In this document: positions 3,001 through 64,000 of the stretch, piece by piece
How positions within the stretch are numbered: the stretch's first letter is position 1
How the letters are laid out: the number at the start of each line of letters is the position of its first letter
NCBI RefSeq assembly: GCF_000787575.1
Contig: NW_012236503.1
Span: forward strand, 62,001-126,000
From: Acytostelium subglobosum LB1
Taxonomy: Eukaryota; Evosea; Eumycetozoa; Acytosteliales; Acytosteliaceae
DNA length: 64,000 bases
Direction: 5' to 3'
Position numbers and translations under genes: made by a program
The notes under the pieces: model-generated
The model's input: the letters and a program-made list of their open reading frames with translations, nothing else
Told to the model about the DNA's origin: nothing
The model's database searches: none

Positions 3001-5597
3001 CGCATCACCAATGGCCACGGTCATTGACGGGGTGAGCGAGTTTTGAGACAGGTCCAGATTGGTGATCGATCGACTGGCCACGAGGAAGCCCACCAACAGA
3101 TTGATCAACTTCTCGCTCATGGTGTTGGGCGCGAAACTGAGATGTGTGATGAAGCTTGTCGAGGACAACTGAGCAAACACTTGTGCTTTGTCGCCGGTCT
3201 TTAGCAATGACTTGCTAAGTTCGAACTTTGATCGCTGCCCACTCAAGATGGACCTCATTATCGTTTGAATGTCCTTTGCGCCATCATCCTCATCGCTGTC
3301 CTCCTGCTGCTGTTGTTGCTGGCCCTGAGTCAAAGCCGAAGTAGCCTCCTTCTTTGTAGCCTGTGTGAACTTTTGCATCCACTCTCCCTTGTCCTTCTCT
3401 GACGCTGCCATATATAGCATGGAGACCTCCCTATTCTTGATTTGGAATCCCTTGCGATACTCTTTGTTGTTGGGGGGGAGGAAGGGTCAGTGAGTGAGTG
3501 GAATTATTCCAGATGATCGTCCATCAATGAATGATACATACCAAAGCCAAGCTCGGAATCATCGACCTGGATGTTGGACACCTTCTCCATCTTTTTGAGG
3601 AGGTGTAGACAGCCTTCGTAGGCTATTAGATTTATATTGGAATGAGGTGGGACGTCATCCACCTTCTCAGTGAATAGTATAATGTCGGAGAATAAGAATG
3701 TATGATAGGTAGTTCGTTGATTATTGTACTGTTCAGTGAGGCTACCCTCCTTCAAGAACCTACGACCCTTTACAAAGTCCGCGCTCTATGATGTTGAGTG
3801 TGTTGTGTGAGTTTGAGTTTGCTCTTTGAGTTTGAGATTGAGTTTGATTGATTAACATACATTAAACAAACCTATTGTAGTTGACTTAATAGAGTTGGAT
3901 ATCGATATGACCTTGTTGATGTTGTTCGAGTCTAGTACTACCTCTTTGATGATGGTGCCAAACTGATCGTAGAGCTTCATGTATGATCGTGCGAGTTCTG
4001 GTGATGTTGTCGATGCCTTGCCCTGCTGGGATGATGATGACAATGTATCAGCCAATTGTTTGATACTGCCATTGAATCGTGCCATCCAGTGCACTGGTAA
4101 CACCAACAGTGATGGCAGGCTGTAGTAGGCATAGTCGGTGGTGTGGCGCGAGGGGTTGGACGCATTGAGTCCGGTGCGGCGCAGGTTGGACAGGCCGGCC
4201 TTGAGCGTCGTAGCAACTTCGTAGTTGACACCAAATATCTCGGACAACAATACAGGCTTCATCACACCAGAGTTTGGCAAGTCCACTATTGGAGCCAGTT
4301 TGAATCCATGCTCCGACTGCATCTTCTGCTCAGCATTCTTTACAAAATGATCGAAGCGAGTGTTATTGAACGACAATGAACAAAGTGCAGCGATACTATA
4401 ATTGTACAACAATGCATATTGTTTGTATTTCTTCATGTGTACCATCTAAACATTGTTTGACTGATTGTTAGTGTTTGTGTGTTGGGGGTGAGGGTTGGGG
4501 CGAGGCCGAGGCTGGAATGATTCCTCCCCCACACCCCACTCGATCAATCAATGATTTCGATTACTTACATATTGAGTTAGGATAGATAGTAGATTGGAAT
4601 GAAGGGATGATGATGAGTGGAGACACTTTTGGAGGTCGTCCACGAGTGAGCTGGCGATGCTGTGGATGGAGTCCACCTCGAGGAAGACTCTGCGCAACTC
4701 GTCATGTGTAATCACCTGCTCATTCTTCTTGAGAGGCTGGTAAAAGATATCAAGCATCGCCTTGATGCTGTCGGCATAGGCTGTAGTATATTGTACCAGT
4801 TGCTGGACGACCTTCTTAGAGTCATCAGATGTTGGGATTGATGCCGCCGCGGCTGATGTGGCTTGGGCTGAAGCAGAGGTGGAAGATGAAGTTGAGGATG
4901 GAGTAGATGAGATATTGGATGATGTTGTTGATGTGTTGTTGTCGTCCTTGGCATGCTGTTTGCTGTTGTTGTTTGAATGGGATGGAGGCGAGGAGTTGGA
5001 TGGACTGGGCGTGGCATGCTTGACCGGCGACACTGAAGTCGTGGCCGAATGGCCATTCGTGGCAAATGATGCACCAGCATGGCCACTTGGCGATGATGAG
5101 TGGCCAACTGATGATGTTGACGAGTTGTTTCCAACAACGCCCTGTGACACTGATATTGTCGATGATGATACTGTTGTTGGGGTGGCCGATGTGGGGGCAG
5201 GCGTGGCAACATTCTGTTGCCAAAAGTCCAACACCTTCTTATGATTCTCAACATTATTGCCAGGTGGCTTGTCGGATGCGGTCGTGGTCGTCGAAGAAGA
5301 TGTCAAAGGAGTTGAGATACTCGATATTGTTTGGACCATCTTACTGCCCATCTTTGAGAATATACTTGAGCCACTATCCTTATCACCCTTATCATGCTTG
5401 TCACTCTTATCATGCTTCTCTTGTAACTTCTCCTCCTTCCTCTCCAACTTTTCACGTTCCTTCTCTCTATCACGCTCCTTATCACGCTCCTTGTCAATCT
5501 CTTTTCTTATCTCCTTTGCCTTCTTATCTCTCTCCTTCTTGCTCTTGCCATCCTTGAACTTGTCCTTATCCTTTATCTTGTCCTTCTTGTCCATCAT
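1..5597 (-). CDS. roco5: Roco5-like protein: RhoGEF, PH, LRR, Roc GTPase and COR (C-terminus beyond window)
   Basis: A large signalling protein of the Roco family. I join four exons: 5597-4569, 4445-3861, 3785-3542 and 3461 to the left edge (about 1,770 codons). All three joins have GT/AG ends and matching phase. The N-terminus is Lys/Glu/Asp-rich, then Ser/Thr-rich. A DH (RhoGEF) domain follows, with the typical LPSLLVLPVHWMARFNGSI stretch, then a PH domain ending near EWMQKFTQ. Leucine-rich repeats lie at about 3100-1800. The Roc GTPase shows P-loop GQENVGKT (about 1695-1672), switch DFAGQEVYYSTHQFF (about 1420) and GTHLD in place of NKxD. COR runs to position 1. P-loop, switch and PH are in one frame, so exon 4 is open throughout. 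D. discoideum Roco5 has this DH-PH-LRR-Roc-COR order followed by a kinase; the kinase would lie outside the window. Family certain; orthology inferred from domain order. Confidence 0.88.
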
Positions 5598-7328
5598 TGA
5601 TGATTAAATGTAAATGTAAATGTAAATGATTATTGATTGATTGATTGAATGAATGATGTTGGATGGCTGATTGATGTTGGATGTTGGCTGGATATGTGTC
5701 GATCGATCGATTGGTTGATTAGTCCTCCTCACGCCAAACCTTACAACGGTATCCTTTTATGGGTGAGTGTGTGTGTTGTGTTGAGTGTGTGAGAATAAGT
5801 CGTTCGTCTTTCGTCTTGTGTGTTGATGGTGTGGTATGTGGTGTGGGGGTGTTATTTATCTGTTGGTAATGTTACAAAGCAACAAGACACAATGAATGAA
5901 TGACAAGTATTGTTCTGTCTGAATATATATATCTCTAATGTAGACTGGGTAAATTACTATTATTGTTATTATTATTATTATTACTTTGATATGATATTAC
6001 ATGTAACTGGTGAACTGGGCTGTGTTTGTCAGAGGTCTGACTTGTCTTTGATTGTGATTGATTGTGATAGTTTGGTGTCTTAGTGGTCTTGGTATTGGTT
6101 GTTGTTGTTGGAAGGTTGTTCTGTTTTGTGTCGTGAGTGTGTGTTTGATGAGTGGATGGATGGACCTGTTTGAAAAGGACCAACCTCGAGTTTTCTGATC
6201 ACCTCCTATGTTGATGATGATGATGTATGGTAGTAGTAATAGTATTAAGATAACCCACGCACATGTACACACACAATAGTCAATGCAGTATTAAATGAAT
6301 AGGATGTTGATGATGTCGAAGTGTGGAAGTAAATCACTCAATCATAGAACAAACAAACATGGTGCAGGACCCTAAAAGTAAACAAATCACAAAATATCCG
6401 AGAGCTATCGCGTCCGGTATTAAACACACCAAAGTGAGAGAATATGACTTGCTGATGGATTGGATTGTTCGCGGATGAAAGAATGATGACTTTCAGGAGG
6501 GCACTATGTGGGTGAAACACATGCATCACCCATCCGGGTTACAAAGACCACACACTGAGTGCCTTTGCTCCATCCATCTAGCGAAAGTTCGTCATCACGT
6601 GTTGGGCTTTCCCACACTACGGTGATCGCCTCGGATAGGCCCATCAAACAAATCGCCAAAACATTCAAAAGTTGTTTGATGGTGCCATGTAGTGACTTGA
6701 TGCGGCTTGTGGACATCCAATCCCATTCAACGAACTGAACTGGTTGTTTGTTGTCTGTCGTTTGGGGTACCAGACAGATAATAATAATAATATTATTATT
6801 ATTGATGATGGATAATAAAGTTTGTGTATATTGCCGTTGATGATTAGACCCCTCTTTGGTCTTAATGGGGGACTGACTGGAGGACACTCAACCAACCACA
6901 GTGCGCACTGAGTAGTAGATATCTTTGGCAATCTATCTATCTTGGAGATGGATGGGATAATGTAACTCTTTGATTGGGGATTACTTAATTAATTTAGATC
7001 TTACTCTATCACCTTGGCATGTTGGGCGATATCGATCGAACCCAACGATGTTGTTGTTGTGTAATTGTTGATGAAGGTCATCAACACACAACCTAGTCTA
7101 GCCTCGTAGTCATCATTTTAAAGGAAAGCAAAGGAGGTGAATGTGATTTGCGAGCGAGTCCTTGCTCTCTGCCCTTGAAGTGAATGAGTCGTCACTTCGT
7201 CCTTGATGTGGATGCAGTGTTGTTGTTGTCCTCTGTGTCCTCAGTTGCATTGTACTTTTGTTGTTGAGTGTGTGTAGATGTCATTCATTCATTCATTGAT
7301 TGAGTTGATTAGCAAGCTCATACACATG
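5598..7328. other. Intergenic DNA upstream of the roco5-like gene
   Basis: About 1.7 kb without a gene I can support. The part next to the roco5-like start is rich in TGAT and TGTG repeats and probably holds its promoter. The exception is 6480-6700, richer in G+C and with several stems, listed separately. Short open frames here contain Asn/Ile runs from TTATTA repeats and are not convincing proteins. Confidence 0.5.
6480..6700. ncRNA. Candidate structured RNA or decayed repeat, strand unknown
   Basis: This stretch differs from the AT-rich DNA around it. It holds a near-perfect long stem, 6638-6651 against 6672-6686 (14 pairs with one bulged base; the inner 11, CCATCAAACAA with TTGTTTGATGG, are perfect; loop of 20). 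It also holds GGGTGA/TCACCC (6510-6515 with 6526-6531) and a bulged GTGTTGGG/CCCACAC hairpin near 6600. The segment 6523-6562 resembles another at 47760-47801. The minus strand is open for over 80 codons, so a decayed coding repeat is an alternative. I recognise no known RNA family. Confidence 0.25.
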
Positions 7329-7647
7329 TCAATGTTCGCGAACATCTTGACATACCTTCTTTATGACCCATTCCAAGTTGTTATATCCCTTGTTGATTAG
7401 ATAATCAATGTCTCTTGGATCAGTCTCATACTTGTGTCCTTCAAAGTGCTTCATGTAATGTGTGTGTTCAGGTGTATATGGTAAGAAATAGGGAACCATC
7501 CATCACCAACATCATCCATTATCATACCTCTCTAGTGAATGTCCAGTAATAGTTTTGAGACTGTTTTGGTAATCTTGTATTGATTGATCTTACAATAGTC
7601 CTGTACAATGACAATGACTTATAGTTTATCTGATTGCTTAAACACAT
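7329..7647 (-). CDS. LYR-motif small mitochondrial protein (two exons)
   Basis: A small gene of 79 codons, exons 7647-7528 and 7448-7329. The 79-nt intron starts GTATGA, ends ATGAAG and lies in phase 0. The LYR motif is at residues 14-16 (LSLYRTIVRSINTRLP), followed by an aromatic YYWTFTRE segment and a second half with DPRDIDYLINKGYNNLEWVIKK. Length, motif position and the Tyr/Arg-rich helix fit LYRM proteins, which act in mitochondria as assembly or adaptor factors for respiratory complexes and Fe-S transfer, bound to acyl carrier protein. The layout is closest to the LYRM9 type, but the partner cannot be told from sequence. A donor-like GTATGT follows codon K67; I chose read-through because a stop comes eight codons later at a sensible length. 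Confidence 0.72.
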
Positions 7648-8547: not shown

Positions 8548-10723
8548 ATGTTATCTACATCAGGAAATAGTATAAACTCTCAACAACAGCAGCAGAGCGG
8601 GAGAGCAGACTTGGATTCTTCATCTTCATCATCAGAGACAACGAGAAGCGAGAGGTTCTATGGAAGTAGCGATGAGGTCAAGTTCACAGTACCACTTCCA
8701 AATGCACTGCTACAATACCCAATGGTGTCCAAAGTGTGGAGCGCAATGATTCCCAAATTTCCAGACTCTATCAAAGATCGAATACATATATCAACACTGG
8801 TATTCAGGGCCAAGCAAGAGCCCATCCACTCGCCATTCATAGACGCCTCAATGGAGTCAATCAAGATGGCATCATCTGTACATAATAACACAAACAATAA
8901 CGTCCAAGTGATATCAGGTAAGTTATAATTATTATATTATCTGAAATCACGTGATTGGTATAGTGATCACGTGATTGATCACGTGACATATCTGATTCTC
9001 ATACAAATTTATTACCGTTATTTCCAGAGGGCGATTATGAAAGATATAACAACCTGATATCACAAAGAAGAATAAGGATTATTATATTGGTGGCTATACT
9101 GATGCAGGCATGCATGTCTGCATTGAATTATATCAAGTATGGCAACTATATGTTCCGAAGAGATGTTATAATGACTTCACAATTGGTCGTCACTGTGATC
9201 AGTGCCGCCATCCTATTCCGCTTCCCACTCACATCATCACGTGTGACAGTACTATACCTCCAATTCATTCTACTTTGTAATCCACTTCAACGTCTAGTAT
9301 GGGCGGATACTGTAAGTTCAACCAACCTTTTTTGATAAAGTGGTGGGGGTCTGGGCTTAGGCTGGAATGATTCCAGCCTTCACCCCAACCCCTTTTCAAT
9401 CATATTCAAACTCAAACTAACATGATATCCACTCGATCAATCAATAATTAGTTCCCTCCATATGAACCATCATATCAAATCATGCTTTGGATCAACTTCT
9501 CGGTGCCCACGGCCAAGTTTTGGAGGGCAAGTGTGACTGGATTGGTTGGCATCATGTCTGTGATCATCATACGTATACTTCAACAATATGACACAGTGTT
9601 TAGGATACTCTGGCTACAATTGGGAACATACTTGCTGTATCACATCGTCGTTGGATTTGGCTCACGTCTCTCTGAGGTGGTAAATCGGGCACTTTATGTC
9701 GAGTTGCTCTACCTCTCGCCACTCCAGCCAGCACACAAGACCTACGCCTGTGTCGAGAGATATTGTCGGGCGCGCAGTCATTGGCTCACACAACGATTCA
9801 AGGATGCAGAGATTGAGAAACGTTTCCTCGCATTCTACGGACAGGAGTCGTTTGTTGAGGTGGGTCTATTGCTGTCCACAGTCATCTCCTCAGCCTACTA
9901 CATCTTCCAAGACATGTATTACAGCAAGTCTGGTATGCTGGTAATGTTCCTGGTACTGCGATTCGTCCTTGTCATCCCCGGCTTTGTGATGCTGTTCTAC
10001 CTATCGATTATGCGCAAGACCAACCCGATCAAAGCTGACCTGCTGTCGCTCATTATCTTCACACTGATCATTCTGGCGCAGTATGCAATGTTTGATCAAG
10101 TAGTGTCGTGGGAGGGCAGTCTCTTCTACTTTGGCGCAATGATGCGTGTCCTCACACTGGCCTCCAATCAACTGTTCCTCGTGCACACACTTTACATCAT
10201 ACCAATCAGCTATGCCATCATCCCGCTGTCCGTCGTGCTCTACGGCTCGCAGAACAACAACTACATCTTCTTCTTTGTCGTACTCACTGTGGTCGTGATC
10301 GTCTTCACGCTGATACGAGAGAAGAACCAAAGACTACGCTTCCTTGTCCAACAATATGGTGCCGAGGCACTGGTCGACAAGGTGGCCATGGCGAACAAGA
10401 CCAGCATCCATGTTCAAATGGAAATGGATGGTGCAGACATACAACTTGTTGTCAGCAACTCAAATGACAATGGTGATGGTGATGCAGTGGGCATCGAATT
10501 ATCAAACATGGAACGTGACAGACCCAGGTCTCATCATCATCACTTGCACTCAATTGCCATTGATCATATTGTATCCAACAACAATGACCAGTCGACAGCA
10601 AATGATGAAGGATCAACAACTACCAACATCCAAGGTCTAGGAGTAGTGTCCCCAGCCAAGAGTCCAAGACGCAACCTTCTAGACTATTCACAAGATTCAT
10701 TCAATGTATCACAACAGCAATGA
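8548..10723 (+). CDS. Unrecognised multi-pass membrane protein (three exons)
   Basis: Exons 8548-8917, 9028-9311 and 9452-10723 join in phase to 641 residues; both introns are GTAAGT...AG. Residues 1-120 are polar with a poly-Gln/Ser stretch. From about residue 145 there are several hydrophobic helices (for example IILVAILMQACMSALNYI and VTVISAAILF), continuing to about residue 520, with a further run rich in Val/Ile/Phe before the cytosolic-looking tail. The last 120 residues are hydrophilic with a His run. I do not recognise the family; a receptor-like or channel-like role would be guesswork. Intron 1 carries the CACGTG palindrome cluster and intron 2 the GGCTGGAAT palindrome described under findings. 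Confidence 0.8.
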
Positions 10724-29597: not shown

Positions 29598-32500
29598 ATG
29601 AATTCATCAAGATTGCCACCTCCAACATTGATATCGACTAGTTCGTTGTCATCGTTGTTGCCACCAACGTCACCACCACCAAAGTTGCCAATGTCGACAT
29701 CGGCGGCTAATCATTTGCATCTGCATGGCTCAAAGGATTCATCAATGTCAACACCACTCAATATGTCCACTGGCTCACTGTCGTCGACGACGTCGGGCTC
29801 GACAGGCCACGAGGAGAAGCTGGAGAAGCTCAAGGACATCACCGTCAAGACCATCGACAACATCATTCTAAAGATCGCAGAGATGAAGCGCGAGAAGCAG
29901 TTCCTGCAGTCGTTCCAGGACGTCATGAGGATATCAGAGTCATTGGTGGAGATTGAGAAGATGTTGGATAGCGTCGACTTGGACAGCTCATCCACCTCTT
30001 CCTCCTCCTCATCCAGTCCTGGCACAAGCACGCCTCCACTTCCAGCTCAAGGTGGTGCCACACCCGAGCGAATCGACTCTGCCACCGAGCTCATCAAGAT
30101 CATCCACACGAGGACCAATCAAACCAAGCGCGGATCAAAGAGTATGTAGTATCCACGATCACCTCGCTTGCTCTGGCGTCCATTGTCTCACATTCACTCA
30201 CTCACTCAATCAATCAACAGTGCAGAGATCAGTTAGTAGCGTGGACTCTTTGCATGCTGTGTTGCAGCTGTGCTTGGATAACATTAAGATCAAGATGCTG
30301 TCGCTAAAGGTTCATATACCATTGGAGACATCAATCCAGGCGGCCATCAAGAATGGTGAGATCATAAGGAACATCAGGAATCAATTGAATGCCATCAGAA
30401 CTATCACGTTGCCAGACTCTGTCTCACTGATCGATGGTGAGAAGCTGTTGCTAAAGGTGGAGGCACGCTATCACTTCTATGACAATGTTCACGATCAACA
30501 AAAGGAACAACAACAACAGCAGTCTTCGTCTTCGTCGTCGTCACATCATCATCATCAGACGACTCATACACTGCCGCCATCACCATCCAAAGAGAAGGAT
30601 CTGTCATCATCAGCCACATCATCAATCTCAACCAACGAGGAAGAGTACGTCACTGGCACATGCTACATCACCAACTTCCAACTCATATTCAATGGACTAC
30701 ATCAAGGCGCACACTTTAGAGTAAGTCACCTGGGCCCAGAGGTGGGTGTGGAATGATTCCAGGCCACTCACTGACCCGATCAATCAATCAAACAGAAATC
30801 ATTTAGTATTCACTCAGTTGGCAAGATTGTAAAGACTGGAAAGAAGAAGTCAGCTGGCGAGTTCACTTATAGACTGAACTTCTTGTGCAAGGACTGCCAC
30901 ACATTCTCATTCTCCTTTGACAGGAACAACAATAACTTGAAGAACGTTAGACATTGTGTCAATAATATATTGAGCGAGCCATTGTTCTGCTTCACGCACA
31001 AGAACGAGTCGACGCTGCGACCCGACCAGCACAACCTCGGCTGGAATATCTACGATGTGCGCTCCGAGTACGCGCGCATGGGCGTGCCCTCACCCGACTG
31101 GAAGATAAGCCAGTTCAACAACGGCTACTTCCTGTGCGACACGTACCCCTCGCTACTGGTCGTGCCCGCCAGCGTCCCCGACGAGCAGCTCAAGGCCGCC
31201 GCGCAGTTCCGATCTAAGGGAAGGATACCCGCGCTCTCATACTGCCACTGGAGCAACAGGACGTCCATCACGCGATGCAGCCAGCCCCTAGTGGGCATCG
31301 GTAGCAACCGCAGCCGCGATGACGAGCAGCTGCTGAACGCCATCCGTCTTACGGCGTCCACGTACGGCGGTACGCCAAACGACAAGACGCTGTACATTAT
31401 CGATGCGCGACCCTACGCCAACGCCGTGGGCAACCGTGCCAAGGGCGCCGGCTGGGAGATCATGACCAACTATGCCAACTGCGAGATTGAGTTCATGGGC
31501 ATTGCCAACATCCATGCGATGCGCCACTCACTGCTTAAGCTGCGCGAGGGTGTCGAGTCCAGTGTCAACAAGGAGGACACATGGTACGCCACGCTCGAGT
31601 CGTCCGGCTGGTTCAACCACCTCAAGCTGATACTGGCTGGCGCGGTGCGCGTAGCCAAGCTCATCCACATCAACCATTCCAATGTGCTGGTGCATTGCTC
31701 GGACGGCTGGGACCGCACGAGCCAACTGGTGTCGCTTGCCGAGATCCTGCTCGACCCATACTTCCGCACGATTCGCGGCTTCCAAATGCTGATCGAGAAG
31801 GAGTGGCTATCCTTTGGTCACAAGTTTGCCCAGCGCTGTGGTCAGGTCCAGGGCAAGGATGAGGACGAGCGTTCGCCCGTCTTTATCCAGTTCCTCGAGG
31901 CCGTCTACCAGATCATCAATCAGTTCCCCAACAAGTTTGAGTTCAACGCACACTTCCTGCGCACGATTTACACGCACGCCTACAGTGGCCGCTACGGCAA
32001 CTTCCTCTACAACTGCGAGAAGGAGCGCATCCAGCACTACCCCTACGCCAAGACCCTGAGTCTCTGGTTCGAGATCGACCAACACATCAGCAGCTACATG
32101 AACCCGCTCTATCAGGCCGGCTCCATCGGCAGCGGCAGCAGCAGCGTCGACGAGAAGGACGTACTCTTCCCCGATTGTTCAATCAAGAAGATGAAGCTTT
32201 GGCGCCAGATCTACTTCCCACTGGCCGACACCGATATCTATGAGGTCGAGGAGCGATTCATACGCCAGGCATTCGAGAAGCAGTTGGAGGAGCGCGCTCA
32301 AGAGTTCGCCACCAAGTATCCCTTGTTGCCAATCCGTCTGCACACTGCGTCCGTTTCCAATCCACGTCGTCCAACTCTTACACTGTCTCAGCAGCAACTT
32401 AACTATCCAGTAGTGGCATCAGTTGTGTCTGGCACCACTTCAGCTGCAGCGGCAGCTGTCGACGAACAACCCATCACTGGTGAGAACCATGGCAAGTCAG

Positions 32501-43753: not shown

Positions 43754-45056
43754 ATGGGAAATACACCTGCCAAGACATCAAATAATACACCTCGTTTAAC
43801 ACCTGAACAACAACAACAATATGATTGGGATGTACAGAGATATAATGCCAAAAGGTTATGGGTATCAACTCTGCCAAGGAACTATGCCGTAGACCAATGC
43901 AAGACCAATGATCCAACTGAAGTCTTCTCTCCAAAGAGACCAAACACACATACATTCTCCAATGTCCAAGTCCCATCCAGTATGTATTCATTCAATGAAT
44001 GACCTCAATCACAGACTAACTAATTGATGTCAATCATAGTGTTCTCAAAGGGATTCACTAAACAAGAGGATATGACAGAGTATTATGATAATCTGGAGTT
44101 GATACAGAATAAGGTCAAGATAGTGGCGGCTCAGTTACTTAATTCAAAGTATTGTGTTGTATACTCTGGAGCAGGGATATCAACAAGTGCCGATTTACCA
44201 GACTTTAGAGGACCAGAGGGATGCTGGACCAAGCAAGATAAAGGTATCCGTGATGATGGAAAGAAGACTCCATCACTAACAGAGATTGTACCAACCTTTG
44301 CTCATATGGCCATCGCCAAGTTATGTGAGTTGGACATGATCAAGTGCGTGATCACGACCAATATGGACAATCTACATCTTAGATCGGGTGTTCCACATAG
44401 TAAGATAGTGGAGATGCATGGTAATTCATTCAAGGAGAGATGTACAGTGTGCCAGAGATTCGAATACAAGACCACTGAAGTGTATAATACCCAAATGACA
44501 AAGTGTTCAGCTGTTGGATGTACTGGACTTATGGTGGACTCTATCATTGACTTTGCCATGCCCATCAACGACGAAGATTGGCAACAATCCAAAGAGCATT
44601 CCGAACGTGTAAGTAATTTCCAAGTCGATCACGTGATCGACACAAGTCACGTGATCACCTGGCACGTGATCGACTGTCACGTGATCATATATATTGACCA
44701 AACTCAACTCAATCAAACCATCACAGAGCGACTTGTCCATCGTATTGGGAACATCAATGAGAGTACTGCCGAGCTGTTTGTTGCCAGAGTTGGGTCCACT
44801 AAAGAATGGTGGCAATTTGGTCATTTGTAACTTACAGATCACACCTTATGATGACAATGCAACTAGATTGTTCTGTACGACTGACGAGTTCATGTACTTC
44901 TTGATGAAGGAGTTGAACATCGAAGTGCCAATGGCCACTCCCAAGGGTGAGCCCATCAGACAACGCGATTATCCCGTCCAACCCAAGCCGTACTGGAAGA
45001 CCAGTGATCAACTCGACCCTGCAAGCTATGATATCCCATTCCGATTCCTCTTCTAA
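43754..45056 (+). CDS. Sirtuin (NAD-dependent protein deacylase), SIRT6/7-like
   Basis: Exons 43754-43979, 44040-44608 and 44727-45056 join in phase to 374 residues. The NAD-binding stretch GAGISTSADLPDFRGPEG and TTNMDNLHLRSGVP with the catalytic His in EMHGN are present. Zn-binding Cys pairs lie at CTVCQ and CSAVGC. GTSMRVLPSCLLPEL and NGGNLVICNLQITPYD fit the SIRT6/7 class, which act mostly on chromatin. A short, polar N-terminus begins with MGNTP, a possible N-myristoylation context, which would be unusual for a nuclear sirtuin. Intron 2 carries four CACGTGATC palindromes. The gene is tail to tail with the cupin gene. Confidence 0.92.
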
Positions 45057-45586: not shown

Positions 45587-47495
45587 CTAGTGCAATATGG
45601 CATCGTTTATTGATGATTCATGGTTGTGTCTCGAGTCGAGTAACTCTTCGTCATCAAGGTTGGGCTCATTCTCATTCTCCTCTTTGGTAGCAGGTTCGTC
45701 CACAAGTTGCTCGGCTGGATTATCCATGCCAGCCGTAGAGTATGGCGAATCCAATGACTTGCTAAGAGGCTCTTGCATATCCATATACTTGAGAATGATC
45801 AATAACACAAAGGAGAGCACTGCGCAGAGTACTAGGAACCACAAAGGAAGAGTATAACTGTTGGTTCGACGCTTGATCAATCCAAGCAGGGGTGGGAACA
45901 GGAAGATGTTCAGGTTGTAGCTGGTACAGATGATACCGTAGGCTGTGCCCACGATTGAGATGTCCACTAACAGTGGCACACACGACATAAGAGTGGTGTT
46001 GAGCAGGGCGAAGCCCAGTCCAATGATGATGATCCATGGCAATGGGAACACATCGGTGACATTAAGTAGCGTGATTCCAATGCCCAGCAGAGTGCAGGCA
46101 AACATCATCACCTGGATCTTCCTGCCGCGCACGCGCTGGATGAAGTAGCCCGTGAGCATCGGAACGAATCCATTGATGATGGCCTCGGCGGACATGATTC
46201 GGGCGGCCGTAGTCTCGTCAAAGCCAAATTTGAACTCGAGCAGGTCCGTTCCAATGATGGCCAAACCAAACATGCAGTAGTATGATATGAAACAGATGAC
46301 ACTTAGCAACCAGAATCTCTTGTTTAACTTTGTTGCCATGTCCTTGACCTCCATCAACTTTGTCAAGAACTCGCCCACCTTTGATGTTGGCTCTGGTGTA
46401 TGTCCAGTCATCTCTTCAGCACTGATCACTGATATTGCCGGTGATCCCTCATCCACATCCTTCTCCTCAGTATTCATAGAGTTGACACTATTAATCTTTG
46501 TCAATGCTACCATACTAGATGTCCTATCTATTTGATCTGTGTTTGATTGTGTCAGTGCGTGGGTGTGGGGTTGGGGCTGGAACTATTCCAGCCTCAATCA
46601 ATCAAATGTTTATACATACCTGTCCATCTTAACTTCTCTCTATACTTTACTAATAATAAGTTCAAACCGAACTCAACAATGAATACAATGGCCACGAACC
46701 AGATGGCTATCTTGAATCCAAAGCTGGACTCGATCACTGGCAATAACAACAATGCAGCTAAATGTTGTAGACGTGAGATGTATGAGTGATCAGTGATCCA
46801 AGTTCTCAATAACATAAACATACTTAAATTGCCCCAATAGAACCAACATGCTAAGAATCCAACACATATTGGCACCTCGCTAGGTGCGTAGAATAATGGC
46901 TAATGTTTGATTGAGTGAGTATGATTGATTGATTGACAAGTGATGTTGTTTGGTACACTTACAATCATTGTAGAGGCACATGCCAATAGGGTCTCGCCAC
47001 CCATTCCAAGAAGGAAACGTCCTGCCAATATACCGCCATAGTTTGGCAATACCAGTGCAGTGAGCACTGATGACAACATGGAAACTCCACAAAATATAAC
47101 GCTTACGAATCCTGTACCCATAATATCAATGAGTACTCCTCCAAGTATAATCATAAACAGATTAGGTAGTGAATATATCGAGAACAGATATCCATACTGA
47201 ACATCGCTAATATGTAATATATCGTCTGTGATTGGTGTGTGTGTGTGTGAGTGTGAGTGTGAGTGTGTGTGGTTGAGTTTGAATGATTGATTGATTGGTC
47301 ATCATTCCAGTTTTCTTTGATTGATTGATTGATTGGATGATTGAACATACAATATGACCTGGAGAGTGCAACAGGTGTTGAGTAGGCAAGTTGTAAACCA
47401 TAGCCTAGATTGGCAATCAAGAACATCACCAAACATTTCTTTAGTGTGTTCTTTGATATCTTTGGTAAAGATGGCATCTTGATCAATGTACCCAT
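45587..47495 (-). CDS. Major facilitator transporter, MFSD1-like
   Basis: Exons 47495-47351, 47225-46963, 46899-46824, 46757-46620 and 46527-45587 join in phase to 520 residues. YGYLFSIYSLPNLFMIILGG and GRFLLGMGGETLLACASTMI are typical of MFSD1, the lysosomal dipeptide exporter family, and about 12 hydrophobic helices are visible. A Glu/Ser-rich cytosolic loop separates the halves and the tail has a LDDEELL acidic-dileucine-like motif, fitting endolysosomal sorting. The 66-nt piece 46823-46758 has GTATGT...TTTAG ends but is also open; reading it through gives 542 residues. Lysosomal place and substrate are inferred from the family. Confidence 0.87.
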
Positions 47496-48955: not shown

Positions 48956-49469
48956 TCTATATTATTATATTTGATAGTCTACGAATCAATCAGTTAGTAT
49001 CAATCTTGATCACATGTTGTGTGTTTGTTGATAATCATCAATAACATCATCATCATCATCGTCGTCATCAACAATTATCAATCGCAACATCTGTATATAT
49101 CTTCATATGTATGTTATATATGAATATGTGATATTTACACTTTAAGTTATATAAGTATGGTTAAGGTTATGAATGAAGACGTGACTTTGTTGCCAATTAA
49201 TGAGTGAGAGATAGTAGGAGTTGATGAAAAACCCAAAAATCACACACTAATTCAGAAAGCATCATGGTGAACTCTGCTCATTATCGTGTTTCGCAAACAA
49301 CCACACACACGCAATAATTACAAATTGCCCGGGCTTTTATTTTCAACTGTGAAATAGTATGTAATTGGAATAGTTCCAAAGATAAAATTTATATGTATTT
49401 ATATATATATGAAATTGAATAATCACTTGATTGAGTGATTGAGTCATTGATTGAATTTTCTCGACAAAT
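48956..49469. other. Intergenic DNA with GCCCGGGC palindrome
   Basis: Mainly TGAT/ATCATC repeats. TTGCCCGGGCTTTTATTTTC at about 49326 has a counterpart (AGCCCGGGCTTATATTC) at about 52137. Each lies about 130-140 bp beyond the 3' end of a copy of the same membrane-protein gene, so this is duplicated 3' flank. Confidence 0.5.
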
Positions 49470-50371
49470 CTAGACATCTGGTCCTCCAAAGTCATTTGTG
49501 TATCTAGAATCAATGATGATGTTGTTATCCAATTTTTGATGATAGTAATGGATGGGCTTGACCTCTATCTCCTCGGTCATGTTGTGGTATTCCTGATCCA
49601 CTTTAGTTGTTAAACAGATATTATCTTGTTTTTGATAGAGTGATTCTTGGGTTTCCAAATCATTGTTTGAGGGTTGGCAGAATACAATCCAAGGTAGAAA
49701 GAGAAGAGTGCACACCATATTGATCCACCAACCCAAAGCCAATATAAGACGGAAGGATTGAATTTTTGATCGGCGGGATCATTGTCTGTCCAAAAGTAGC
49801 AATATTGACTCCTTTCATAACTTGATTGACAGTTTATAGCTTCCAAATGAGCAAAGTGTTTGATTGAGGGGAAATAGACAGTGGGAAACAACGTCAACAA
49901 AGTACCAAATGTCCACCAAACCTTTAACGGTCTATCAAAGCTATGGGCCAACTCTGATTCTCCAAATTTCACAACTATCAACGCTATAAGTAATAGGAAC
50001 CAGTTGACCATACAGAGTGACATGGCCACCAGTGTTGGTGTAAATGTATATTTAAGTTCATTATAAGGTATGAATTCCTCCTTTGATAATTAATTAATAA
50101 ATACATATGTATTGATTAAATCAAGTTAAGAAATAGGTGGGAGTAGTATAAGTATTATGAAAAGTATCAAAAGATTGTGGTATTTAATTCATTGAGAACC
50201 TACATTGTCATTATTTGTTATATATACTCCATACCATCCATAATAACCAGTATAGTATGTTGGACTCCATGGAGTTTCATACCAAGGAAGGAAAAATGTT
50301 ACAATTAAGAAAGCAAAATTATTAATTATAGTGACCAAAAGAAAATTATAATTGGGTTTCTTCACTTCTAT
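49470..50371 (-). pseudogene. Decayed copy 1 of the four- to five-pass membrane-protein gene
   Basis: Homologous over its length to the gene at 60537-61341. The first exon (about 50371-50204) gives NFLLVTIINNFAFLIVTFF and YYTGYYGWYGVYI; the second starts at 50077 with EFIPYNELKYTFTPTL. It has lost an initiating ATG next to the first exon and shows one frame jump near 49700, after which NDLETQESL and the tail continue. The shared CQSSYERSQYCYFWTDNDP is also in copy 2 (CQSSYEKSQYCFFWTDNDP). It may still be partly expressed, but I regard it as a pseudogene. Confidence 0.7.
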
Positions 50372-51960: not shown

Positions 51961-52274
51961 AGGATCACATTGTTGATCACAACATTGGCCGTTGGTGTGT
52001 TGAGATAAAATTGATTGATATATATAACTGATTGATTGATTGATTAATTGATCAAATGAATTGATACAACTAACAACTCAAACTTTTATCACGAAACTTC
52101 ACTCAATCAATCAACTTCACACTTAATTAATAAAAGCCCGGGCTTATATTCTAGTCAACTAGGTAGTTTTGGAATAGATCCAATCATTACTATTTATTAA
52201 TTAATTGGTGTCTGAAATCATTATATCATATTTGGGAATGGAGTAACAGAGTGATTGAGTAAATAACTACATCT

Positions 52275-52650
52275 CTAGACATCCTCAATTGGGTGTACTG
52301 CATTATCATTGATGTTGGTATCCAATTGTAGATTACTGTGAAGGAGAGGACTCATCTCAATCTCCTCAGTCAAGTTGTGGTACTCCTCATCGACTCCTGT
52401 AGTTAAACAGATCGGATCTTCATTTTGATTGAGTGATTCTTGGGTTGGATCCATATTATTGTTAGAGTGCTGGGGATGGCGTTTGAGATAAAACCATCGT
52501 AGAACAGTTCTGAGTGCACCAATTACCGAACCAGCCACCCATAGCCAATATAATTCGGTAGGAGCGAATGGATGATTGGCAGGATCATTGTCTGTCCAAA
52601 AGAAGCAATATTGACTCTTTTCATAGCTTGATTGACAGTTTGTGTGTGGA
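52275..52650 (-). pseudogene. Truncated copy 2 of the membrane-protein gene
   Basis: Open from about 52640 to 52275. It matches only the C-terminal half of the family, starting at CQSSYEKSQYCFFWTDNDP, through LYWLWVAGSVIGALR and GVDEEYHNLTEEIEMSPLL. Upstream of 52640 the homology stops abruptly; the frame there (MKYEMKQRQLRNVAKPAAMS) is unrelated. The 5' half was lost by rearrangement or insertion. It is closer to copy 1 than to the intact gene in its kept part. Confidence 0.75.
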
Positions 52651-57954: not shown

Positions 57955-60332
57955 TTATAGTTTGAAATCGTCGGCAGCAGGATAGCTCTTGTTGGCATAC
58001 TTGCCATCCATCACCTTGGCCGTCAGTCTTTGCTTCCCACCGACAGTATTCAAGTGTAGCGTCGATCGATAGTAGTGTTTGACTTTAGGTACGTGGAATA
58101 GACAGACAAGACCATCTCTTACTTGGCTACTATTGATTGATTGACACTCTTGAATGATGTGCTCTATGATGTTCGCCTCGGAAATGCCTTTATCAATAAC
58201 ATAGTCATTTCCTGTCTGAAATAGATATGTCCTCCTTTGACCTTTGACACTGTGATCATTGATTGGAGTGTATGTGTTAGTGTATGTTGTCTCTCTCTCT
58301 ACATGATGTCGGACTATAATACAAACCAGAATCGAATGTCATAGGTCACATTCTCAGGGTCATAGCCAACAACCTCACCAGGCCACCAGCTCTTATAATC
58401 GTCGCCTTCTTCGTTGGTCATTGCCGTTACCATCTGATTCAACTTGAAGGCAGTTGGGCGTGGTGGATGAGACAAGTCGTCAGGCTCCAGGCCAAATGTA
58501 GATCGGAAGGCAACGTCGGCCATGTAGTTGTTGATATGGCCCTTGATGTGTTTGTTGTAGTTGTCCTCATAGAACTTCCTCGAGTGGCTCACATAGCTGG
58601 CAAGTGCTACTCCATCCTTTCGATAGATCTCAATGAGCTTGGTCATGATCATATCCCTGGTCACCTGTTGCTTGCATATCTGTCCAGGTCGTCTCTGTTT
58701 GTTGGATGCCTTAATGGCTGTGTTGTTGGAACCATGCTTGGCTGTAAGGTTTGGGTTAACAATTAGTCCACAATGGTCGCAGAGCATTGAATGAATAGTG
58801 ATAGTACTAACACATGGCTTACCTTCAGATGCAATGTTACACAACATCATTAAGCAGCCGTACAGCTCCATATATTCGCCAGAATGATGTATGAAGATGT
58901 GAAGATAAGAGGTAGGTTCAATGTTGTAAATATTGATTAGCAATCTGCCAAACCTCTCACACAACACTCTCCATTGATAGGACTTGATGACAATGGTGTG
59001 ATCGAGTAGCAAGATAACCAACTTGTATATCATCTCCCAGAGTCTAACTACATTGGCCTTTTTGTTGTTGTTGTTGATGATAGTATTAGTTAATGCACTC
59101 AATCAATCACTCACTTGGAGCCTGACGATTGTCTTACTCTCTCAGTTTCATCTTCAATGAGATCTGTGAGTCCATCTTCCCTCCTGACCATGACTGCAAG
59201 CAATTGGAGACATTGATGAAAGGTAGGCTTGGCTTGACTGAATCGATACTGTGCAGGCATTGGTACTGATTTGCCACGTCTCGTCCAAACAGTACCCTCT
59301 GGCTTCATCTTTAGGTTGCATCGCTTGAGCAAGACGCTCTCGATTGTCCTCATTGAGTTGGACAGGACATTGTCGACCTCGACCAAGGCGCCAGAGTGAT
59401 TGCCCACATCCAAGGCGGTGCGCATGCTGTCGATCGACAGGGAGTGTCTCTCTATCTCATCATCGTCGACCTCATTGTCCTGGATATCTTCCTCATCACT
59501 GCTGGTCATGGAAAAATTGTCATCATCATTGTTCTCGTTGTCCTGGTCAACATAATCGTCGTCATCTTCGTACTCGTCAACATAATCATCGTCCTCATCA
59601 TCGTGTTCCTCGTCCAGATCCTGATGGTCAACATTGTCTAATGCCATGGACCTACTGTCCACAAGATACTTGATGAAGAGCTTGAATAACTTCTTGATCG
59701 AGCCTGGTATCATGAGGTCTGGTATGTACTGATCAAGCTCAAAGGCAACACCATAGATTGGACGATGTGCGAATCCTTGGCGCTGTACTGCCTTCTTCTC
59801 TTGACTGCTAACTTGGCCCTCAGTCAAATCTAGATACTTTGTCTTTGACCATATCTCTCTTGTAGAAGTCTATGCCAGAACCAACATATCCAACAGTCCT
59901 CCTAGTGCACATGCACCTGTAGCACTTTATGATGCTGTTGCCACTGAATATGTCATACATCCCGAGCAACTTTACACAACAACTAAGATCGTTGGTTGTG
60001 ACGAAACGGATGTTGTATTTGTATTGCCTTCCGTCTCTTTCAGATCTGAACCAAACCTATGACATGAATGTGTAAGTGTCAGTATGATTGATTGATTGAT
60101 TGATTGATTGTACACTGGATATACAACAACTAACGGAACTTACAAGGTATGGCTTTGGCAGAGTGCTGAGCAATGTAGTCACTGGTGCAAGGTCGTGGAT
60201 AAGGTCATTCAGTGATATGGACAGTATGGCCTCGCCAAACGGACGCTTGGCCTCGGCAGCAGTTTTACCTGAGATGGCTGATAATGTTGTCAGTTCTTGA
60301 AACTTCCTGCCACAGTCTTTCTTGGTCATCAT
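57955..60332 (-). mobile_element. Transposase-like gene with Tnp2/Plavaka features, in several exons
   Basis: Splice-supported pieces: 60332-60144 joined to 60056 (phase 0) giving RFVTTNDLSCCVKLLGMYD and KCYRCMCTRRTVG; 59827-59111 with GVAFELDQYIPDLMIPGSIK and an acidic stretch; then to 58823, 58741-58323 (phase 1) and 58215-57955 (phase 0), ending in KSYPAADDFKL. The Cys-rich patch after a D-L-x-C segment and SYLHIFIHHSGEYMELYGCL resemble the CxxC and H-x-x-x-H...YG regions of Tnp2/Plavaka (CACTA-type) transposases. Between 59836 and 59827 and at about 59105 the frames do not join cleanly, so the copy is broken or has unseen introns. Terminal repeats were not found. Confidence 0.4.
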
Positions 60333-60459
60333 ACTCCCCTCCCCATTTCACCTTCCCTCACAATCACCACAATCACTTTCCTTCACCATCTCCAACTTTC
60401 ACTCACCCCCAAATCAGAACTTTCACACCACTTTCCAAGTTGACCAAACATGAATCTCG

Positions 60460-60473
60460 CTTGCAAAAGCAAG
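60460..60473. repeat. CTTGCAAAAGCAAG hairpin downstream of the membrane-protein gene
   Basis: Stem CTTGC/GCAAG with AAAA loop, 63 bp beyond the stop of the minus-strand gene at 60537. The same 14 bases occur at 61504-61517. Confidence 0.7.
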
Positions 60474-60536
60474 TGAACGATAGATGCTTATTCTATTGAT
60501 AGATTTAATGAAAAGGAGGTCCAAACTGTTGGTCTC

Positions 60537-61341
60537 TCAAGCCATAATTTGAGGGTAAAGGAGTGGACTGGTCTCTGTCTTTTGCAACAATTTAATGTCT
60601 TGGTCATATTCATCACAAGGAGTTATGTTGATACTGCTGTCTTGATTTGAATCTAGAGTTGATTTGGTTTCAACATCAAGGTTTGATGGTGGACGATTGA
60701 CACCATACCAAGGTACAAAGCTAAAGATCACTGTTAATATAGCACCAGACATCCACACCCAATAGCCAGCAGATGGTCTGAAACGATGAAGTGAAGGATC
60801 ACTCTCTATCCAGAAGTAGCAATATGTATTCTTGACCATACTTGATTCACAATGTAAAGCCTCTTGATGTCCAAAATATCGGAATGTGGCTGCGAAATAC
60901 AGTGTCGGGAACACAGTGACCAATGTACCAAGTATCCAAAATACTTTCAAAGTCCTATCAAACTTGTCAACATTCTCTGGATGTCTGTTTTCAATCAGAG
61001 CCAATACATTAAATAATGTAAACCAGATTATAACAGATATTGACATTGCCAATAATGTTGGTAGGAAGGTATTCCTTAGTGCTCCATATGGTATGAGTTC
61101 ATTCTTCATTCATTGATTCAATCAAATAAAGTGTTGGAAGTGATTAGATACTTTTGAAAATGATTGATTGACAATTGATACATACATTATAATCTAGATA
61201 AACACCTTGCCACCCATAATAAGATGGATTCTTATATGAGTTATGATACCATGATAGATAGAATGGTGCAGCCAAGCAAACTAGATAACCGAAGATCACT
61301 TTACAATGAAAGCCATATAACCATTTACTAGTCTTCTCCAT
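60537..61341 (-). CDS. Intact four- to five-pass membrane protein, family head of copies 1 and 2
   Basis: Exons 61341-61186 and 61103-60537 join in phase 0 to 240 residues. Helices: VIFGYLVCLAAPFYLSW, SISVIIWFTLFNVLALI, TLKVFWILGTLVTVFPTLYF, YWVWMSGAILTVIFSFVPW. Loops carry a conserved SSMVKNTYCYFW segment and, in the first extracellular-like loop, YYGWQGVYLDYN. The arrangement recalls tetraspan-like proteins without being clearly one. The C-terminus is polar and Thr/Asp-rich, ending SPLLYPQ. It sits 223 bp from the end of the GH3 gene on the same strand, and that pairing is repeated in the decayed copy. Confidence 0.8.
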
Positions 61342-61503
61342 CTGTTATTATTATTATATATATATATACATTAAACTATATCAATCACATTTGATTAAGA
61401 TACAAGTCTCTCTTACATGAACAAAAACTTGTTCTCAACTTCAACTTCTCCATCAAACATTCGCATTACAAAGTGACACATCTCAAAATGGATTGATCAA
61501 ATT

Positions 61504-61517
61504 CTTGCAAAAGCAAG
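61504..61517. repeat. CTTGCAAAAGCAAG hairpin downstream of the GH3 gene
   Basis: Same hairpin as at 60460-60473, 47 bp beyond the stop of the GH3 gene (61564). AGGTCCAAAC follows nearby in both places, suggesting related 3' ends. Confidence 0.7.
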
Positions 61518-61563
61518 AGGTCCAAACCATTCATTCACTCCTTCAATAATGTATTTTATTTAG

Positions 61564-64000
61564 TTAGATAAGGTTGATGTCAATTGAGAGTTGTCCGATG
61601 GCAATGGTGAATTGACCGGGTTCAATGGTGGGTCGGTTGTCTTGTCCAATGAATGAGAAGTCCAGTGGAGCGAGGATGAATTGGACATTGATGGAATCGC
61701 CTGGGTTGAGATCAACCTTGTCGACACCGCGCAACATTCGGATCTCTGGTGTGACCGATGCGTACAGATCACTCAAGAACAACAGCACAGTGTCCTTGCC
61801 ACTCATCTTGCCAGTGTTGGTAACGGTGACATTGATCGCCACGTACTGGCCAATGGTCGCGTTGAATGTGTTGGTGCCATCAGTGGTGAGGTTGGCCACC
61901 AGGTTGGAGTAAGTGAATGATGTGTAGCTCAGTCCAGTGCCAAAGTCAAACAGTGGATCGTGGAAGCCGTACAATGAGTACTTGTAGTAGTAGGGCGAGA
62001 TGTCGCCCGTGGTGGCTGGGTACGTGATGGGCAGACGACCCGAGGGGTTGACATCACCAAAGATGATGTCGGCGATGGGCTTGCCAGCCTGTGGACCGGG
62101 CAAGTATCCCATGAGTACTCCGTCAATCTTGGCAACGAGTGAAGGTGGCAGCACACGTGGACGAGCCTCAAACAACACGAGAATGACTGGCACGTTGACG
62201 TTGGACACGATGGCCTCGAGCAGGGCCAGGGAGGCCGGGTCGATGGACAGGTCGTAGATGTCGCCCGGGGTCTCGGCTTCAGGCTGCTCGCCCATGACCA
62301 CGACCACGGCGTCGGCTTGCTTGGCAGCGGCGACGGCAGCGTCGATCATTCCTTGATTTATCACTCCAAACTGAGTGCCTTGCTCGTAGACCACTTTGGC
62401 CGATGTTTGATTGAGGGCTTGCTGGATGCCTCCCAACACAGTGGTACCGTATGGCACCTCTGCGTTGTTGACTGGACCCTGCCAGTGAACTGACCATCCA
62501 CCGCATTGATTGGGCAAGCTGTCTGCGCTTGGGCCAGTGACCAAGATGTTTTGGATCTCGCTTGGGTTGAGTGGCAGCGCCTCATTGAGGTTCTGCAGCA
62601 ATGTGATCGACTCCTCGACGATTGATGCAGCGAGCTCGCGGTCCTCAAGCTGGCCAATTGTGTTGAGGTATGGGTTGGAGGGGTCGGGGTAGGGCTCGTC
62701 GAACAGACCGATCGCGTACTTGAGGTTGAGGATGCGAGTGACCGACTCGTCGATTCGCGACTCGGGAACGACACCGTCCTGCACGAGCTGGAAGAGGATG
62801 GTTGGGAACGAGAAGTCGTCCGGCACCATTGACATGTCGATACCGGCGTTGAGGGCGTAGATGATGGCTTCGGCCATGCTCGAGGTCAAATGGTGGAACT
62901 CGACCAGCTTCTCAATGTCCTGCCAGTCGGTGACGATCAGGCCGTCAAAGGCCAGCTCGCCACGCAACACACCGTTGACGTACTTCTCGCTGGCGTGCAT
63001 AGGCACACCGTTGACCTCGCCCGAGTTGATCATGGCGGATGATGCGCCAGCGTCGACGGCAGCGGCAAACGAAGGCAGGAAGTAGCGACGGAGCATGCGC
63101 TCTGGGATCCAGGCGGGTGTGCGGTCCTTGCCGTTGACAGGGTCAGAGTAGCCCAGATAGTGCTTCATGCATGAGGCGACGTATGGTGTGAGAACTCTGC
63201 CAGTGAATGGGTTCTGGCCGCCTTGGAAACCGGTGACTGACGCAGCGCCCATTATCGAGGCGACATAAGGGTCTTCGCCAAAAGTCTCATAGGTCCTGCT
63301 CCACAATGGCTGAACTCCAACACCAAGCACAGGTGCAAAGATCCAGTGGAATCCAACAGCAGACGAGTCCTTTGCTGAGACAGCATTGGCCTTGCTCGCC
63401 AATGATGGGNTTGAAAGTTGCTGCCAATCCAGTGTTCTAAAAGTGATAGATTGATTGATTATGTGTCAGTTAGTGAGTGATGGAATCATTCCAACATGTA
63501 TGATTGAGCGATCGAGTGAGTGATTGTTGCAAGATGGAATGATTGATTGAGTGATGGAATCGTTCCAACATGTATTGATGGGGTGATGTGATTGATTGAG
63601 TGTTTGGATGAAATTGACGGAGTGATCATGTGATGATGGAGTGATTGAATGAGTGAACTTACATGTGGGAACATGGTACCCATGTGGATGTAGTTGGCAC
63701 CGTGAACACTGTCCATTCCGTAGATCATTGGGACTTTGCTTGGACTGTTCTTGAGGGTGTAGTTCTGAATGATGGTCAGGGCCTCAATCCAGTTGGTGGC
63801 ATTCATATAGTGGATCTCATTGTTGATCACACCGTTGGCCGTTGGTGAGTTGAGGAATGAGCCAATCTTGTACTGATTGGTCACCTGGTCCAAGTAGGTC
63901 TGGTTGATCGTGGCCGTGTTGTGCTCCAACAATATGTTGATGTCGATCTGGGTCATCTGACCGATCTTCTCGAGCAACGACATTGAGTTCAGGATGCCGC
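61564..64000 (-). CDS. GH3 beta-glucosidase, lysosomal-type (N-terminus beyond window)
   Basis: The gene is open at the right edge; its first visible exon ends at 63663 and the second runs 63436-61564, joined in phase 0 (226-nt intron). It has the GH3 TIM-barrel features GMDSVHGANYIHMGTMFPH, TYETFGEDPYVASIMG and the nucleophile region GLIVTDWQD, then the alpha/beta sandwich (EESITLLQN; VTGPSADSLPNQCGGWSVH) and the fibronectin-like C-terminal domain (YGLSYTSF-like GFHDPLFDFGTGLSYTSF). It closely resembles D. discoideum lysosomal beta-glucosidase GluA. An n at 63410 sits where one extra base would shift the frame (TFNPSLASKAN expected), so it is probably a sequence flaw. Secretion signal not visible here. 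Confidence 0.92.

What the first reader, a model, noticed from the sequence alone, without database searches (positions are those of the whole stretch)
3462..63662. Introns of unrelated genes share a TGGAATNATTCCA palindrome
The same inverted repeat sits in introns of five genes: roco5-like intron 3 (3499-3511) and intron 1 (4510-4524), the membrane-protein gene intron 2 (9360-9378, perfect GGCTGGAATGATTCCAGCC), myotubularin intron 2 (30749-30761), the MFSD1-like gene (46575-46593) and GH3 intron 1 (63481-63493 and 63555-63567). Flanks match too: read in the sense direction, roco5 intron 3 and myotubularin intron 2 both continue with CACTCACTGACCC, and roco5 intron 1, membrane intron 2 and the MFSD1 intron continue with CCCCAACCC. 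I saw no copy in coding DNA. This could be an introner-like family that made or entered introns, or a shared RNA fold helping splicing.
Basis: seen in the sequence. Interest (0 to 1): 0.72.

Follow-up and report, generated by a model that had tools for sequence, protein, structure and literature searches.

The report
Intron-restricted near-palindromic 13-base motif
In a genome that looks like a social amoeba's, the same 13-letter sequence recurs hundreds of times and, where it could be checked, sits mostly inside introns, between the start of the intron and its branch point, which suggests an extra signal for handling introns whose reader is unknown.

Summary
TGGAATNATTCCA has 731 sites in this 30.7 Mb genome (reversed control 0), TGGAAYNRTTCCA 1416 (control 5). 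With my own ab initio gene models on 284 kb, exact-arm copies run at 69 per 100 kb in introns, 2.8 between genes and 2.7 in exons. Without gene models, GTAAGT lies 8-38 bases upstream of an exact copy 139 times, downstream 7 times. Spacing is fixed: 731 sites against 210 summed over 30 other gaps.

An introner family is not supported: with motif and low-complexity words masked, motif introns are no more alike than matched introns (6.37 v 6.37). A conserved paired stem is not supported either: flank pairing is marginal, a variant breaking the stem is common and one keeping a G-U pair is at background.

Best reading: a sequence-read intronic signal, probably acting on pre-mRNA splicing through an unknown factor. 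A DNA dimer site is not excluded. No RNA data or related genomes were available.

The parts
3499..3511 (-). motif, sense TGGAATAATTCCA, in roco-like gene intron (HMM 3462-3541)
   Evidence: junction falls inside a PH-domain match of the spliced, shortened protein (residue 433 in a match at 362-467, 29 bits, cut-off 27.7)
4513..4525 (-). motif with one mismatch, sense AGGAATCATTCCA, in roco-like gene intron (HMM 4446-4568)
   Evidence: junction at residue 157 inside a RhoGEF match at 77-201
9363..9375 (+). motif TGGAATGATTCCA (arms extend to GGC...GCC, 9360-9378) in membrane-protein gene intron (HMM 9312-9451)
30749..30761 (+). motif TGGAATGATTCCA in myotubularin-like gene intron (donor GTAAGT at 30721; HMM acceptor 30834 uncertain)
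   Evidence: the downstream exon encodes Myotub-related, 484 bits
46578..46590 (-). motif, sense TGGAATAGTTCCA (GGC...GCC around it, 46575-46593) in MFS-transporter gene intron (HMM 46528-46667; by eye the donor is more likely the GTATGT at about 46619)
   Evidence: MFS_1 match 27-403 spans the junction at residue 191
63481..63493 (-). motif, sense TGGAATGATTCCA, second copy in GH3 gene intron (HMM 63421-63662; by eye the acceptor may lie 16 bases off)
   Evidence: Glyco_hydro_3 match 8-345 spans the junction at residue 112
63555..63567 (-). motif, sense TGGAACGATTCCA, first copy in the same GH3 intron, 74 bases from the other
49366..49378 (.). exact-arm copy TGGAATAGTTCCA outside predicted genes
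1534..1546 (.). one-mismatch match TGGATTGATTCCA in coding exon; probably chance
   Evidence: gene model

Best explanation
The element is a short intronic cis-signal, in sense UGGAAYNAUYCCA with fixed internal spacing, found (at most one arm mismatch) in about one intron in eight of my sample. In 45 of 65 sampled copies it starts 15-60 bases after the 5' splice site, and 18 of 19 branch-point-like CTAAC words of motif introns lie downstream of it. Shown, on my gene models: strong enrichment in introns, position, fixed spacing, recurrence across unrelated genes, no element homology around it beyond low-complexity words, no clear pairing covariation. Inferred: a trans-acting factor, most likely an RNA-binding protein acting on pre-mRNA, recognises the sequence itself and helps define or regulate that intron. 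The hairpin that the sequence can form may assist but is not what selection mainly preserves.
For: Copy number 731 and 1416 against controls of 0 and 5. Exact arms with the C23 gene array left out: 13 in 23.7 kb intron, 2 in 67.8 kb intergenic, 2 in 162.5 kb exon (Fisher p 1.4e-6 and 1.9e-10). Donor upstream 139, downstream 7. GGAA-N3-TTCC ranks first among 4-mer pairs with gaps 0-8 seen in at least 6 introns, array left out (16 introns v 0.4 expected). CTAAC 18 times downstream and once upstream (39 introns). No first-intron bias: 12 of 81 rank-1, 7 of 56 rank-2, 3 of 34 rank-3, 13 of 72 later introns. In paralogous genes on C23 motif presence clusters by intron position (14 of 31 introns at 7 positions grouped by hand, 3 introns at unshared positions left out; permutation p 0.014). 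A sense-strand C three bases after the motif in 51 of 77 sites against 0.40 after other TCCA in introns (p 3e-6) or 0.47 after CA (p 5e-4).
Against: No transcript data, so splicing itself was not observed; introns are my HMM's, and 85 of 243 lack a GTAAG/GTATG donor. A near-palindrome with fixed spacing is what a DNA-binding homodimer would want. Intergenic DNA also holds a small excess (exact arms 2 v 0.3 expected, one mismatch 11 v 4.1), and GGAA-N3-TTCC is the top gap in exons too (8, next 6), in part from Gly-x-Ile-Pro codons. The sense-strand bias of tolerated changes (30 pyrimidine v 5 purine type) is significant against intron-wide composition (p 0.004) but not against that of motif introns (p 0.09). 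Incidence per available position varies threefold without trend with intron length (2.1-6.5 per 1000, 1 to 10 sites per class), so no length-compensating role is shown. Donors of motif introns are not weaker.
Confidence: 0.55

Rival explanations
1. DNA site: a homodimeric DNA-binding protein reads TGGAA half-sites three bases apart in gene bodies, for transcription or chromatin; introns are merely where such a site can sit inside a gene.
For: Palindrome with rigid spacing; variable centre with conserved half-sites; several copies in some introns; little coupling at pair 4/10 (186 single, 19 double, 11.8 expected by hand if independent); small intergenic excess (2 v 0.3, 11 v 4.1); strand bias explainable by local composition.
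Against: Exact-arm density is about 19 times lower between genes, where much regulatory DNA lies (odds ratio 18.6, counts); no first-intron bias; 18 of 19 CTAAC words downstream; C three bases downstream in sense without its mirror upstream (51 v 14 of 77); half-sites not independent: TGGAACNATCCCA 218 found, about 73 expected by hand (coding copies inflate this).
Confidence: 0.27
2. RNA hairpin: the intron folds into a 5-bp, 3-base-loop stem that brings splice sites together or presents a structured binding site.
For: Exact copies form the stem with median probability 0.84 at 22 C, 60% above 0.5, n 53; the loop is nearly always three bases; 5 of 77 sites extend the stem by three or more pairs (2.1 expected, p 0.048) and flank positions 2 and 6 pair at nominal p 0.04.
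Against: The other 6 of 8 flank positions do not pair significantly (position 1: 20 v 18.5). Other 5-bp stems with a 3-base gap are not enriched (28 v 30.3). The A.C mismatch form TGGAACNATCCCA is common (218) whereas the G-U form TGGAACNATTCTA is at background (10, reversed control 12). Double changes at pair 4/10 only slightly exceed independence (19 v 11.8).
Confidence: 0.12
3. Introner-like family: a mobile element created or entered these introns and the motif is its conserved core.
For: Same motif in many unrelated genes; motif introns share CACTCA/CAATCA words more than matched introns (within-group score 11.13 v 8.63, p 0.009); some paralogous introns carry it and others do not.
Against: Upstream flank with little information; first 20 bases after the donor no more alike than in other introns (0.271 v 0.268, a part of that call not touched by its masking fault); excess similarity gone when low-complexity words are masked; few intergenic copies.
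Confidence: 0.04
4. Chance or low-complexity artefact.
For: Introns here are rich in CAATCA/CACTCA simple repeats, and some exact genomic copies look like coding GxIP repeats.
Against: Order-3 Markov introns give 0.13 expected against 19 found; 731 v 0 for the reversed pattern.
Confidence: 0.02

Closest known systems
Intronic splicing enhancers/silencers read by RNA-binding proteins (for example UGCAUG; recalled)
   Same: Short intronic signal outside the splice sites and branch point, recurring in unrelated genes, sometimes in several copies
   Different: Longer and stricter (ten arm positions nearly fixed, plus Y and A in the spacer), near-palindromic with rigid spacing; factor and effect unknown
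C. elegans IMMAD intronic motifs and the CeRep25B minisatellite (PMC4039745; passages read)
   Same: Near-reverse-complementary intronic words linked to splicing; 75% of CeRep25B repeats lie in introns
   Different: CeRep25B is a tandem 24-base minisatellite essentially restricted to clusters on two chromosomes; here mostly single dispersed copies
Introners / introner-like elements (PMC9860276, PMC7789003; passages read)
   Same: Repeated sequence in introns of many genes; inverted repeats and predicted hairpins in Amoebophrya
   Different: In PMC9860276 similarity must reach near both splice boundaries; here about 13 bases are shared
Homodimeric transcription-factor sites with 3-base spacer (recalled)
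   Same: Inverted half-sites TGGAA/TTCCA, fixed spacer, variable centre
   Different: Found in introns far more than between genes, at all intron ranks

Membership tests
Introner (PMC9860276) | Intron-intron similarity beginning near both splice sites in unrelated genes | tested here: not met
   upstream flank with little information, first 20 bases after the donor 27% identical as in other introns, no excess similarity after masking motif and low-complexity words. The paper's own BLAST pipeline was not run
Introner (PMC9860276) | Intron presence/absence between relatives, or target-site duplications | not testable with these tools
   no related genome held (one search states no relatives)
Structured RNA element (hairpin) | Compensatory changes and tolerance of G-U pairs | tested here: not met
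   doubles 19 v 11.8 expected; G-U form at background, A.C form common. Two of five pairs tested; flank pairing marginal
Structured RNA element (hairpin) | Match to a known RNA family | tested here: not met
   no Rfam match in the window at gathering thresholds
Intronic splicing-regulatory element | Enriched in introns over exons and intergenic DNA, at set positions relative to splice signals | tested here: met
   on my own gene models
Intronic splicing-regulatory element | Changes splicing when mutated; bound by a splicing factor | not testable with these tools
   needs experiment
DNA-binding dimer site | Symmetric, independent half-sites at fixed spacing | tested here: inconclusive
   fixed spacing met; symmetry and independence strained but composition could explain the bias
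DNA-binding dimer site | Marked enrichment in promoters or intergenic regulatory DNA | tested here: not met
   2 exact-arm sites in 67.8 kb intergenic against 13 in 23.7 kb intron (array left out); a small excess over chance exists (2 v 0.3). Promoters were not examined apart

The most novel reading that the evidence does not exclude
This lineage has evolved a further core-like intron signal beside the 5' splice site, branch point and 3' splice site: a strict 13-base near-palindrome, recognised in pre-mRNA by a dedicated factor, that marks a tenth or so of all introns as one co-regulated set.
Probability: 0.3. Interest if true: 0.8.

Novelty: new variant of a known kind. Interest (0 to 1): 0.6.

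Why it matters
Outside the best-studied animals, plants and fungi little is known of intronic signals other than splice sites and branch points (recalled). A strict, abundant and largely intron-restricted motif gives a ready handle: it can be deleted from a reporter intron and used as bait for its binding factor. It would also show how a large set of introns can come to share a signal without visible copying of a mobile element.

Tried and rejected
Introner family: rejected on flank and end-to-end similarity. The first all-against-all run was faulty, because masked letters matched each other; one search repaired it and one search repeated it with canonical introns only.

Paired RNA stem: disfavoured. 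Other spacings: 210 sites over 30 gaps against 731 at this one; the 210 exceed their own reversed control (21), and some are pairs of neighbouring motif copies or GGAAT repeats. Generic inverted repeats with loops of 3 to 11 are 26-41 per gap against 26.4-30.3 expected once TGGAA is set aside; gaps 0 and 1, too short for a hairpin loop, are in excess (47 v 26.0 and 59 v 34.7, of the latter 16 from this motif). Length-compensation: motif introns are longer (median 114 v 81), but incidence per available position shows no trend. Weak-donor compensation: no.

U6 snRNA link: the genome's U6 (C44:571719-571825) contains UUGGAACGAU just before ACAGAGA, matching the left half of the motif, and lacks a GUUCCA 3' of it. 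The right half would mispair with it at the nearly invariant A of position 8, so I kept it as a curiosity only.

Strand bias of the centre base (C 65, G 23, A 8, T 4, counted by hand in the first 100 of 139 rows) looked like RNA-level reading, but the background AATCATT:AATGATT in introns is 49:21, so I do not count it.

Literature: ten searches, of which I saw listings of at most 15 titles and abstract beginnings each; some matched far more papers than were listed (69,754, 333). One search finds the motif strings in 8 papers, on other subjects by title. Passages read: PMC4334915, PMC7789003, PMC9860276, PMC4683709 (a Dictyostelium intron study in which 'motif' and 'Acytostelium' occur 0 times), PMC3946582, PMC4039745. 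I found no account of this motif there; most subscription papers are not in that library.
Full report
What was checked. The window is G000:C27:62001-126000 of a 30.73 Mb, 56-contig eukaryotic assembly without names or relatives. GC content near 0.45 and size fit Acytostelium subglobosum, whose genome is 31 Mb with 55.0% A+T (PMC4334915, passages read); the naming is my inference. In 100 shuffled windows 16 matches with up to two mismatches were never reached (mean 5.05, largest 12).

Genome scale. TGGAATNATTCCA has 731 sites, its reversed control 0; TGGAAYNRTTCCA has 1416, control 5. With the arms TGGAAT and ATTCCA separated by 2 to 31 bases instead of 1 there are 210 sites over 30 spacings, 7 per spacing (reversed control 21 in all), so this spacing is about a hundred times preferred. 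In the sampled introns GGAA-N3-TTCC was found 29 times and at most twice at any of 24 other gaps; the same gap leads, far less strongly, between genes (4, next 2) and in exons (8, next 6).

Gene models. No annotation was available, so I trained a simple gene-finding HMM with one shared model for intron and intergenic DNA on the window, C23:1-200000 and C40:50001-70000 (284 kb). It predicts 243 introns, 158 with a GTAAG or GTATG donor. Exact arms: 19 in 27.5 kb intron, 2 in 71.5 kb intergenic, 5 in 185 kb exon; order-3 Markov sequence gives 0.13 for introns and 0.3 for intergenic DNA. With one mismatch: 23 (1.8 expected), 11 (4.1 expected) and 19. Because a gene array at C23:70-100 kb is rich in the motif, I repeated the exact-arm count without it: 13, 2 and 2. 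35 of 243 introns carry a copy with at most one arm mismatch; without the array and with canonical donors only, 15 of 125. As a further check I took 33 more exact sites's list, outside C23: the HMM puts 29 in introns, 3 outside genes and 1 in an exon. By eye two of the 29 (L002; L043 at 1048) and two of the other four (L027; L038) look like repeat-protein coding DNA (Gly-Ile-Ile-Pro). Pfam matches that run across the spliced junction support real introns for MFS_1, Glyco_hydro_3, RhoGEF and PH domains.

A test without gene models. GTAAGT lies 8-38 bases upstream of an exact copy 139 times (75 + 64) and the same distance downstream 7 times (3 + 4).

Anatomy. In sense the motif is T-G-G-A-A-Y-N-A-T-Y-C-C-A. 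In 77 intronic sites with at most one arm mismatch (82 before removing near-copies; two coding-like loci left out) position 6 is T 51, C 24, G 2; the centre C 38, T 16, G 14, A 9; position 8 A 72, G 5; position 10 T 71, C 6. In introns with canonical donors, array and selected loci included, it begins a median of 31 bases after the donor and ends a median of 55 before the acceptor (n 65). CTAAC words occur 18 times in 2128 bases downstream and once in 1242 upstream (39 introns). The 3' side is G-poor (6.6%) and carries a C three bases after the motif in 51 of 77 sites, against 0.40 after other TCCA in introns (p 3e-6). Several introns hold two or three copies 24-91 bases apart.

No sign of a copied element. 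With the motif masked, motif introns are more alike than length-matched introns (11.13 v 8.63, p 0.009, n 39 each); this is due to CACTCA/CAATCA words, for with these masked the scores are equal (6.37 v 6.37, p 0.98). In five paralogous genes of C23, introns at one position may or may not carry the motif, at shifting distances from the donor, with presence clustered by position (14 of 31, p 0.014; positions grouped by hand, 3 unshared introns left out).

Not mainly a stem. Exact copies can form UGGAA-YNA-UUCCA (median probability 0.84 at 22 C, 53 sites; one-mismatch copies 0.28, 26 sites). Of eight flank positions two pair at nominal p 0.04 (2 and 6) and six do not; 5 of 77 sites extend the stem by three or more pairs (2.1 expected, p 0.048), 4 of the 52 exact ones (1.3 expected, p 0.023). 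So a minority may have a longer hairpin, as the GGC/GCC copies of the window do. Stems of other sequence with the same loop are not enriched (28 v 30.3). Genome-wide, changing one side of pair 4/10 gives 186 sites and both sides 19 (11.8 expected by hand if independent). On the C6 background, breaking that pair by T10>C gives 218 sites, A4>G 54, C12>T (which would keep a G-U pair) 10 and G2>A 9, the last two at the level of their reversed controls (12 and 10). GGAACNATCCCA also spells Gly-Thr-Ile-Pro, so some of the 218 are coding; of 5 in sequence I hold, 4 are in predicted introns and 1 in a long ORF (window 11275).

RNA or DNA. Intron enrichment, position 5' of nearly all branch-point-like words, lack of first-intron bias and the sense-only C downstream favour a signal read in the transcript. 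Against that, the palindromic form suits a DNA dimer, intergenic DNA has a small excess of copies, and the excess of T-to-C over A-to-G changes (30 v 5) is significant against intron-wide composition (p 0.004) but not against that of motif introns (p 0.09). I put 0.55 on a transcript-level signal and 0.27 on a DNA site.

Known or new. The motif strings turned up in 8 papers on other subjects by title, and none of the listings that I saw names such a motif; listings were capped and the library lacks most subscription journals. Nearest described things are intronic splicing motifs such as those of PMC4039745 (passages) and introners (PMC9860276, PMC7789003; passages); neither fits.

Limits. Gene models are mine and imperfect: by eye the HMM borders of the MFS-transporter, GH3 and myotubularin introns are probably off.

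Noticed in passing
C23:81714-81872 and 87201-87333 (L013), C23:98042-98165 (L014): Introns at one position of three paralogous genes share a different conserved block (GGCCA-TGGTTGGCAAC-like ... CTCGCCAGAC--TCAACC) although they lack the motif; nature unknown.
   Followed up: partly
C44:571719-571825, 564165-564266, 565247-565347 (L047-L049): One full U6 snRNA gene and two partial copies whose 5' parts differ. The full U6 keeps UUGGAACGAUACAGAGA, but its 3' end has no GUUCCA to pair with it.
   Followed up: partly
window 49366-49378 and 52170-52182: Two motif-like sites, each some 30-40 bases downstream of a CCCGGGCTT word, near repeats that are 82% alike (49706-49835 and 52512-52641).
   Followed up: no
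window 8967-8986, 44624-44641, region after 45478: Recurrent palindromic words around GATCACGTGATC.
   Followed up: no
C23:43-48 kb and 79-100 kb (L009, L012-L015): Long paralogous genes whose predicted proteins look, by eye, secreted or membrane-anchored; rich in motif introns.
   Followed up: partly
introns, as sampled: Introns are G-poor in sense and full of CAATCA/CACTCA simple repeats, more so in motif introns; CCCC runs are also commoner there (7.1 v 1.4 per kb).
   Followed up: partly
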